Below, piece by piece: positions 27,310-54,958 of a stretch of DNA of 64,000 nucleotides. The position numbers and the translations under genes were made by a program. The stretch is from Catenulispora sp. MAP5-51 (GTDB lineage: Bacteria > Actinomycetota > Actinomycetes > Streptomycetales > Catenulisporaceae), in the NCBI RefSeq assembly GCF_041261205.1, contig NZ_JBGCCH010000001.1, positions 496,001-560,000 of the forward strand, in the 5' to 3' direction. Below the pieces are notes generated by a model. That model was given only the letters and a program-made list of their open reading frames with translations, searched no databases and was not told the origin of the DNA. Numbering within the stretch: the first letter of the stretch is position 1; the number at the start of each line of letters is the position of its first letter.

Positions 27310-27395
27310 TTGAGCCGGCACGCGGTTGTCCGGTTACCCGGCGCGGTCGGCGTCGCCGTCCTGCTCTTCGGATGCCCCGGTGCTGTCGGGGGCCG

Positions 27396-27772
27396 GGCCG
27401 GTGCGGAAGATCGCCAAGACCGACCCCAGGCTGTGGCGTGCCTACCTGCTCAAAGAGGGACTACGCCACGTCTTCAAGGTCAAAGGCGCCGCCGGACGCG
27501 CCGCGCTGGACCGCTGGCTCATCTGGGCCACCCGCTGCCGCATCCCCGCGTTCGTCGAGTTGGCCCGCACCATCAAACGCAACCGCACCGAGATCGACAA
27601 CGCCCTCGACCACAACCTGTCCAACGCCCTGATCGAATCCATGAACACCAAAATCCGGCAGATCGCCCGCACCGCCTACGGCTTCACCAACCCCGAAGCC
27701 CTCATCGCACTCGCACTCCTCGCCCACGGCGGCTACCGACCCCAACTACCCGGCCGAACCACCCACACATAG
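27396..27772 (+). pseudogene. ISL3-family transposase, C-terminal third
   Basis: The plus-strand frame gives VRKIAKTDPRLWRAYLLKEG, then LDRWLIWATRCRIPAFVELA, IDNALDHNLSNALIESMNTK and IRQIARTAYGFTNPEALIAL, the conserved closing part of ISL3 transposases including the Glu of the DDE triad (ALIES). No matching sequence precedes 27396, so roughly two thirds of the gene is missing. It ends 40 bp from the duplicated small secreted protein gene. Confidence 0.7.
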
Positions 27773-27811
27773 GTCAGAGGCGCCACTTTTTACCCTCCTA
27801 CCCGCGAAAGA

Positions 27812-53882: not shown

Positions 53883-54266
53883 GAGTACTGATGAGGTGGC
53901 GGTGGTCTCGGCGGCCGCCGCCGCCTCTTTGGTTTCCGGCGGCAATTCCCGCTGGCCTGACGGCGACTTATGTGTGGGTGGGTGTGGCTGGTTGCGGTTT
54001 GTTCGTGGGCTGACAGTCACAGGCGTTTCTTGACGGCTTCGCGCATGGTTTTGCGGGATCCGTTGGTGGCGCGGGTCGGGGGTGGCGCTGGTTTCGCGGG
54101 GCGGCGGTGGTGTGGGCAGGTGGTCGGCTCTACTGCGACAGTCAAGGTCAAGAGCCACAGTCAAGAGCTGAAGAGCGCCTCCGGCGGCGCCTGCGCGGCG
54201 AGCGGCCTCGCTCCGGGGAGTGGGGGCCGCGCTGTTGGGCGGCGGTCGTTGCTTGTGGTCGCCTGT

Positions 54267-54426
54267 GTCCCGGATTCCCCGCCGCTTCAGCGCCCGGAGG
54301 GAACCATCCCGGCCTGGGCGGTATCAAGCCGGATCACTGTTGCTGGCCACCGGTTCCGTCCGGCTGGACACCACCCAGGCCGGGCTGGTTGTGCAAGCAC
54401 CGCCGAAGCGACGGGGAATCCGGGAC
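54267..54426. repeat. Left hairpin unit of the nested repeat
   Basis: GTCCCGGATTCCCCGCCGCTTC (54267-54288, one base over a 20-mer shown split: GTCCCGGATTCC + CCGCCGCTTC) is answered by its complement at 54405-54426. Within the loop CGGCCTGGGCGGTATCAAGC, then CGGA (54310-54333) pairs with TCCGGCTGGACACCACCCAG, then GCCGG (54359-54383). Stem mismatches are few and partly compensatory-looking. Confidence 0.75.
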
Positions 54427-54526
54427 AACCCCGGTCTGTGGGAACGGTTCCCGCACCACACGCACACACCACCCGGCCGCCGCTGTACCTCACCGAGTGG
54501 ACCCCGTCCACACCACAGGCGGGTTT

Positions 54527-54681
54527 GTCCCGGATTCCCCGTCGCTTCGGCGGGCGAAGCCAAGCAGGCCGGGCCGGTGGTGTCAAGTCGCTGATACCCA
54601 GCCACCAGCTGGGCGATCCGACTTGATACCACCGGACCGGTCTGCTTCCGTAAGGCGACGATGCGACGGGGAATCCGGGAC
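54527..54681. repeat. Right hairpin unit of the nested repeat
   Basis: The same 22-bp motif stands at 54527-54548 and inverted at 54660-54681. Between them CAGGCCGGGCCGGTGGTGTC, then AAGTCG (54565-54590) pairs with CGACTTGATACCACCGGACC, then GGTCTG (54619-54644). The unit has the same architecture as the left hairpin but differs in sequence, so structure looks more conserved than primary sequence. Confidence 0.75.
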
Positions 54682-54773
54682 AGAGGCGACCACAAGCAGC
54701 GTCCGCCGGCAGCCAGCGCGACCCCCACTCCCCGGAGCCAGGCCGCTCGCCGCGCAGGCGCCGCCGGAGGCGC

Positions 54774-54813
54774 TCTTGACTGTCGCCCTTGACTGTCGCC
54801 CTTGACTGTCGCA
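54774..54813 (-). repeat. Three tandem 13-bp repeats in the right arm
   Basis: On the plus strand CTTGACTGTCGCC occurs three times in a row (54775-54812, last copy ending GCAG). The left arm has two less regular copies (ACAGTCAAG at 54139 and 54158). The same CTCTTGACTGTCGC string occurs once more at 12915-12928, in front of the sugar-binding protein gene. Confidence 0.6.
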
Positions 54814-54958
54814 GTAGACCCGACCACCTACCCACACCACCGCCGCCCCGCGAAAACAGCGCCACCACCGACCCGCGCCACCAACGGATCCCGCAAACCC
54901 CGCGCGAAGCCGTAAAAAGGCTCAGCCCCCTGTGTCAGTCGGCCGCTAACCTCCAAGA

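What the first reader, a model, noticed from the sequence alone, without database searches (positions are those of the whole stretch)
54030..54915. Large non-coding nested inverted repeat
Seen: ~885 bp between two unrelated genes form a near-palindrome with well-matched ~250-bp outer arms and two internal hairpins of about 155-160 bp. Long inverted arms are normally unstable in bacteria, so persistence suggests function or recent origin. Known analogues (IS-derived MITEs, replication-terminus or telomere palindromes, retron or transposon-encoded structural RNAs) do not obviously fit: no transposase, no reverse transcriptase, no terminal position. It could be a non-autonomous mobile element formed by head-to-head joining, or a structured RNA/DNA locus.
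Basis: partly seen in the sequence, partly recalled or inferred. Interest (0 to 1): 0.85.

Follow-up and report, generated by a model that had tools for sequence, protein, structure and literature searches.

The report
Mobile palindrome carrying paired RNA-like folds
A soil bacterium (Catenulispora) carries dozens of copies of a one-kilobase jumping DNA palindrome that has no gene of its own but always carries two back-to-back copies of a conserved cross-shaped fold that evolves like a functional RNA.

Summary
The palindrome is real and far beyond chance (folding z = -42). It is one of at least 39 sizeable copies in this Catenulispora genome. Intact copies are about 1.03-1.09 kb, with 24-bp terminal inverted repeats (GGCGCCCCTGACYTATGTGTGGGT) and 8-bp target duplications; the window's site is empty in a sister species. 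The same termini and an exact 8-bp duplication bound an intact ISL3-family insertion sequence in C. acidiphila, and a remnant of such a transposase lies in the window at 27.4-27.8 kb. So it is a large, non-coding, ISL3-type MITE. The window copy has damaged ends and is probably immobile.

The unexpected part is the inside. Each half holds a hairpin of about 160 nt with a four-way junction, and the two halves are head to head. The fold is kept across five species (21 of 55 pairs with double-sided changes). One strand tolerates G.U but almost never A.C, and that strand always runs from the centre outwards. More divergent pairs occur in two further species and one other genus, there without these ISL3 termini. 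A conserved, unnamed RNA (or single-strand DNA) fold, in duplicate, is the best reading. No transcription or function was tested.

The parts
53937..54920 (.). Inserted stretch of this copy: homology to the uninterrupted site in sister genome G008 stops at 53936 and resumes at 54921
   Evidence: L183; second uninterrupted site in G001 (L184)
53962..53980 (+). Damaged left terminal repeat: GGCGACTTATGTGTGGGTG, against the family consensus GGCGCCCCTGACYTATGTGTGGGTG
   Evidence: sequence; consensus
54012..54265 (+). Left outer part: type-A end sequence, then the inner terminal motif (ACGGCTTCGCGC...GGGATCCG) and outer arm
54265..54428 (-). Hairpin 1: four-way-junction fold; the strand that accepts G.U is the minus strand (145.6 bits minus, 93.3 plus)
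54293..54301 (.). Small side hairpin of hairpin 1 (CCCGGAGGG)
54391..54400 (.). Small side hairpin of hairpin 1 (GTGCAAGCAC)
54429..54524 (.). Central spacer; found in both orientations relative to the hairpins in different copies; secondary insertions (IS256-type element, a shared ~250-bp insert) sit here in other copies
54525..54683 (+). Hairpin 2: four-way-junction fold; the strand that accepts G.U is the plus strand (161.7 bits plus, 112.8 minus)
54553..54561 (.). Small side hairpin of hairpin 2 (GGCGAAGCC)
54648..54655 (.). Small side hairpin of hairpin 2 (CCGTAAGG)
54684..54916 (-). Right outer arm, ending in the inner terminal motif; the end sequence and terminal repeat beyond it are missing in this copy
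54771..54812 (+). 13-bp tandem repeat (CGCCCTTGACTGT x 3.2) in the right arm
27404..27784 (+). Not part of the element but its likely kin: C-terminal remnant of an ISL3-family transposase (PF01610, 6e-28) ending in the terminal repeat GGCGCCTCTGACCTATGTGTGGGT (27761-27784, minus strand; 1 mismatch to the element's)

Best explanation
The region is a decayed copy of a large non-coding MITE of Catenulispora. Intact copies are moved in trans by an ISL3-family DDE transposase acting on 24-bp terminal repeats, inserting into A/T-centred 8-bp targets, mostly between genes and close to gene 3' ends (mobility shown from sequence; the transposase is inferred from near-identical termini). Its payload is two head-to-head copies of a roughly 160-nt fold: a lower stem of about 25-27 bp, a four-way junction with two tiny side hairpins, and a long upper stem-loop. 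The pattern of change shows this fold is selected on one strand, the strand running from the centre outwards in each half. I read it as a structured RNA made from the element, or present in read-through mRNA (inferred). Because the two copies are inverted, a transcript crossing the element from either side contains one fold in its working orientation. As the element usually lands near stop codons, the likeliest role is a 3' structure that ends, stabilises or shields transcripts and so makes insertions tolerable (inference, weak). Confidence: about 0.95 for the mobile element, 0.9 for ISL3-type movement, 0.65 for an RNA, 0.25 for the specific role.
For: Mobility: at least 39 loci; terminal repeats with exact 8-bp duplications at L011 tcattatc, L020 agaaaagc, L021 ggttaagc, L032 ttttctca, L041 gcataggg; uninterrupted site in a sister species with one copy of the L013 target and at the window locus; three copies share the same nested insert. 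ISL3: intact IS in G004 (L153:1426-2828) with GGCGCCCCTGACTTATCCGTGGGT ends and exact 8-bp duplication catttttc; transposase remnant in the window with the same terminal repeat. Fold: four-way junction in 79 of 87 hairpins from five species and 36 of 36 from G002 and G009; 21 of 55 pairs with double-sided changes, 0 of 500 shuffles, slid controls far lower. Strand: over 62 consensus pairs A.C 167 versus G.T 1 in the h1 orientation (17 versus 1 pairs), i.e. G.U on the outward strand; 52 versus 14 in the independent set; adjoining arm sequence shows no matching mutational bias. All two-hairpin loci examined in G002, G009 and G012 diverge outwards. Context: 31 of 48 flanks are gene 3' ends at a median of 37 bp (crude ORF calls).
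Against: No transcript data could be examined, and no promoter was established. The hairpins' arms show no co-evolution copy by copy within this genome, so the signal comes from differences between subfamilies and species; sequences are related and counts are not independent. Single-strand DNA would also prefer G.T over A.C. In G002, G009 and G012 the same core lacks the ISL3 repeat, so ISL3 is not the only carrier. No intact ISL3 copy with these exact ends was found in this genome.
Confidence: 0.72

Rival explanations
1. The fold works as single-strand DNA, like the REP doublets (REPINs) moved by RAYT/HUH transposases: the paired inverted hairpins would be the recognition structures, and ISL3 ends would be a later or additional vehicle.
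For: Same geometry as REPINs: two hairpin repeats in inverted orientation (PMC3116915). The core spreads in G002, G009 and G012 without the ISL3 repeat. ssDNA hairpins would also favour G.T over A.C.
Against: Hairpins are 160-180 nt, several times larger than REPs. In this genome the termini and 8-bp duplications are those of an ISL3 DDE element. The near-absolute asymmetry (167 to 1) is more typical of RNA. No RAYT gene was searched for.
Confidence: 0.15
2. An ordinary foldback MITE with no selected fold; the palindrome persists by copying whole elements and by conversion between arms, and the pairing pattern is inherited chance.
For: Arms recombine: outer end types and the spacer flip between copies; arms of one copy are only slightly more alike than arms of different copies (0.903 versus 0.877). 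Outer arms show no strand bias (131 versus 112).
Against: Conversion between arms cannot give a G.U-only strand asymmetry at 16 pairs with none the other way, nor keep two side hairpins that vary in sequence but stay self-complementary in seven species.
Confidence: 0.12
3. Strand-biased mutation (for example C to T on a frequently single-stranded strand) rather than selection makes the G.U excess.
For: Transcribed or extruded strands can accumulate C to T.
Against: Neighbouring arm sequence in the same orientation has C>T 13 versus G>A 17 and A>G 22 versus T>C 34 per thousand, i.e. no bias in that direction; true double-sided changes occur at 21 pairs.
Confidence: 0.06
4. Assembly artefact or one-off inverted duplication.
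For: Many contigs end in the repeat.
Against: Copies occur with different flanks in ten genomes, including the single-contig 10,467,782-bp genome of C. acidiphila.
Confidence: 0.01

Closest known systems
ISL3 insertion-sequence family (e.g. ISPpu12a: 24-bp repeats, 8-bp duplication, PMC4133298 table)
   Same: Termini GGCGCCCCTGAC.TAT..GTGGGT and 8-bp duplication of the same kind as an intact ISL3-family IS of C. acidiphila
   Different: No transposase; only about 24 bp at each end are shared; the interior is unrelated to the IS
Bacterial MITEs (Correia, ERIC, RUP: review PMC2229807; TIMEs: PMC4133298)
   Same: Non-coding, multicopy, intergenic, terminal repeats, duplications, strongly folding
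   Different: About 1.05 kb against the usual 30-300 bp; two selected sub-folds; strand-specific covariation
REPINs (PMC3116915)
   Same: Inverted doublet of hairpin repeats spread through intergenic space
   Different: Much larger hairpins with a four-way junction; here ISL3 ends and 8-bp duplications; no RAYT link tested
Eukaryotic foldback elements (own knowledge)
   Same: Most of the element is inverted repeat
   Different: Two separate hairpins, bacterial host, ISL3 ends
Rfam families
   Same: Structured, covarying, non-coding
   Different: No match reaches a gathering score

Membership tests
ISL3-type MITE | No transposase gene of its own | tested here: met
ISL3-type MITE | Terminal inverted repeats like those of an ISL3-family IS | tested here: met
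   (family-level; in the window copy the left repeat is damaged and the right one absent)
ISL3-type MITE | 8-bp target-site duplication | tested here: met
   five exact in this genome; more in G006; not recognisable at the window copy
ISL3-type MITE | Empty sites in relatives | tested here: met
ISL3-type MITE | Mobilised by an ISL3 transposase in trans | not testable with these tools
   needs a transposition assay
MITE, size definition | About 30-300 bp (PMC4133298) | tested here: not met
   1.03-1.09 kb; hence 'MITE-like' in size terms
REPIN | Inverted doublet of hairpin repeats | tested here: met
REPIN | Short REP units | tested here: not met
   units are 160-180 nt
REPIN | Linked RAYT gene | not tested
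Structured non-coding RNA | Covariation above shuffled and slid controls | tested here: met
Structured non-coding RNA | Strand-specific G.U tolerance | tested here: met
Structured non-coding RNA | Transcribed | not testable with these tools
   no RNA-seq available
Known Rfam RNA | Score above gathering threshold | tested here: not met

The most novel reading that the evidence does not exclude
A previously undescribed structured RNA (or ssDNA) class, a 160-180 nt cross-shaped fold carried as a divergent pair, is the real replicating or functional unit of Catenulisporaceae genomes. It rides on different transposon ends in different species (ISL3 in some, unknown ends in others) and reaches dozens to over a hundred hairpin matches per genome.
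Probability: 0.5. Interest if true: 0.8.

Novelty: new variant of a known kind. Interest (0 to 1): 0.66.

Why it matters
MITEs are usually thought of as short leftovers of insertion sequences. This one is a kilobase long and carries a duplicated fold that evolution has kept on one strand across a genus and into a second genus. If the fold is an RNA, it is a mobile RNA gene pair spread next to gene ends and a testable case of a transposon carrying regulatory RNA. The repeats also break assemblies of these genomes and recombine with each other.

Tried and rejected
Protein-coding reading: rejected, indels and stops, no Pfam match. Known RNA family: none. Autonomous version with its own transposase: L032 carries a transposase in its centre, but it is an IS256/Mutator-type gene (PF00872) inserted there; L040, L041 and L044 share a ~250-bp insert with no obvious gene. 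The intact ISL3 IS of this genome (L127) has different ends (GGCTCTTCGC...). Wider distribution: DNA and RNA-model searches of 396 sampled genomes of the phylum gave only this genome (few candidates scored per genome, so weak or rare copies may be missed). The genome-contig scans returned only C. pinistramenti and one chance hit. Copy-by-copy co-evolution of hairpin arms: not found. First strand counts were dominated by shared positions, so they were redone per column pair with reverse-strand and mutation-bias controls. Literature searches found no description of this family (open-access papers only).

Full report
OBSERVATION. The window holds a near-palindrome with long outer arms and two internal hairpins, as reported. 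As one DNA strand it folds to -469 kcal/mol against -225 for shuffled sequence, z = -42. It has no coding signal.

WHERE. The window belongs to a 10.9-Mb genome in 87 contigs. One genome of the same genus (G004) is a single contig of 10,467,782 bp, the published length of the circular C. acidiphila chromosome; another (G002) has a contig of 89,427 bases with the terminal repeat, as does C. pinistramenti NL8. The genus is therefore Catenulispora.

A REPEAT FAMILY. The same element occurs at 39 or more places in this genome, mostly at 80-95% identity. A 29-bp inner terminal motif occurs 103 times, with none for the reversed control pattern. All ten genomes of the genus searched have it; other genera gave only noise-level DNA matches. 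By my count, 29 of 174 contig ends fall within about 400 bp of a copy.

IT MOVES. Aligning flanks outwards exposed terminal repeats GGCGCCCCTGACYTATGTGTGGGT and lengths of about 1.03-1.09 kb. Five copies have exact 8-bp duplications and others 7 of 8; G006 copies show more. The central four bases of twelve duplications are A/T in 46 of 48 cases. The site of copy L013 is uninterrupted in sister genome G008 with one target copy; other sites are uninterrupted too, though some junctions are diverged. The window site is uninterrupted in G008 and G001, which places the insert at 53937-54920. The window copy has a damaged left end and lacks the right terminal repeat, so it is probably dead.

WHAT MOVES IT. 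In the same window, 27404-27709 encodes the C-terminal part of an ISL3-family transposase (PF01610, 6e-28) that runs into the terminal repeat GGCGCCTCTGACCTATGTGTGGGT. In C. acidiphila an intact 1.4-kb ISL3 element has ends GGCGCCCCTGACTTATCCGTGGGT / GGCGCCTCTGACTCATCCGTGGGT and an exact 8-bp duplication catttttc. A published ISL3 element, ISPpu12a, has 24-bp repeats and 8-bp duplications (PMC4133298). The element is therefore an ISL3-type non-autonomous transposon; the moving step itself is inferred.

INTERNAL HISTORY. Outer end types and the central spacer occur in both orientations relative to the hairpins, which fits recombination between inverted arms. Three copies share one nested insert in the spacer, so that copy multiplied after the insertion. 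L032 carries an IS256-type gene there. Diverged half-elements, with one arm and one hairpin, also exist.

THE FOLD. Each hairpin is not a simple stem. It has a lower stem, two small side hairpins and a long upper stem-loop. The side hairpins vary (CCCGGAGGG, CCGTARACGG, CCCTAAAGGG, CCTTACGG; GTGCAAGCAC, GGCTTCGCC, GGCAGAGCC) but stay self-complementary. The four-way junction was predicted in 79 of 87 hairpins from five species. On 35 non-redundant sequences, 21 of 55 pairs show changes on both sides, no shuffle of 500 reached this, and slid structures score far lower (consensus fold).

THE STRAND. With wobble pairs forbidden in folding, so that neither strand is favoured, 62 consensus pairs gave A.C 167 against G.T 1 in the h1 orientation, at 17 against 1 column pairs. 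A related tally of single mismatches reverses on the other strand, as it should. The strand with G.U therefore runs outwards from the centre in both halves. The neighbouring arm shows no matching mutation bias. A model of the fold found further hairpins in G002 (105 matches, both strands counted), G009 (64) and a different genus of the family, G012 (10). In these, all two-hairpin loci examined diverge outwards. They keep the junction in 36 of 36 hairpins of G002 and G009 and lean the same way in strand bias (52 against 14). Default folding did not give the four-way form for the three G012 hairpins, but the alignment to the model keeps GGCGAAGCC and CCUCCGG at the two side positions. These forms lack the ISL3 terminal repeat.

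CONTEXT. With a simple GC3-based ORF caller, 31 of 48 flanks of 24 copies are gene 3' ends, at a median of 37 bp; 10 copies lie between convergent genes and 3 between divergent ones. These calls are rough.

READING. Shown: mobile family, ISL3-type termini, 8-bp duplications, non-coding, conserved fold, strand asymmetry, head-to-head arrangement. Inferred: transposition by ISL3 transposase in trans, transcription, a role near transcript ends. An ssDNA role as in REPINs (PMC3116915) is the main rival.

Noticed in passing
window 27364-27784: Remnant of an ISL3-family transposase whose end carries the same terminal repeat as the palindromic element.
   Followed up: yes
L032:2508-4036 (G000:C9): Intact IS256/Mutator-type transposase gene (PF00872) inserted in the centre of one copy.
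   Followed up: partly
L040, L041, L044 (centre): A shared ~250-bp insert with ends resembling GGTGTAAGNANTCTTC, probably another MITE nested in the spacer.
   Followed up: partly
L119:3420-3490 (G000:C28) and L118:2976-3080 (G000:C25): Very short forms with the same terminal repeat: a ~72-bp element, and one terminal repeat followed directly by joined end sequences without the core.
   Followed up: no
L263-L280 (G002, G009): A larger form (about 1.4 kb) with over 60-100 hairpin matches per genome and different outer sequence (TTCGGGGTTCGGRTCTTTT near the ends); its ends and mode of movement are unknown. The sequence just before each hairpin is T-rich (TTTTGTATTTCTCC / GATTGCTATTCTTCC) and could be an outward promoter.
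   Followed up: partly
L261 (G012): Element in another genus, about 1.5 kb, with other ends (GCGATTYGATGATCGGCTGAGYGTTGGTGGGGCG) and a long centre.
   Followed up: partly
L135, L136, L139, L141 (G006): Several insertions sit in or beside the same 8-base word ACAAAATG/CATTTTGT, suggesting target preference.
   Followed up: no
L083:1-2744 (G000:C7:276000-278744): Two 940-bp stretches in inverted orientation at about 69% identity, perhaps divergent paralogous genes.
   Followed up: no
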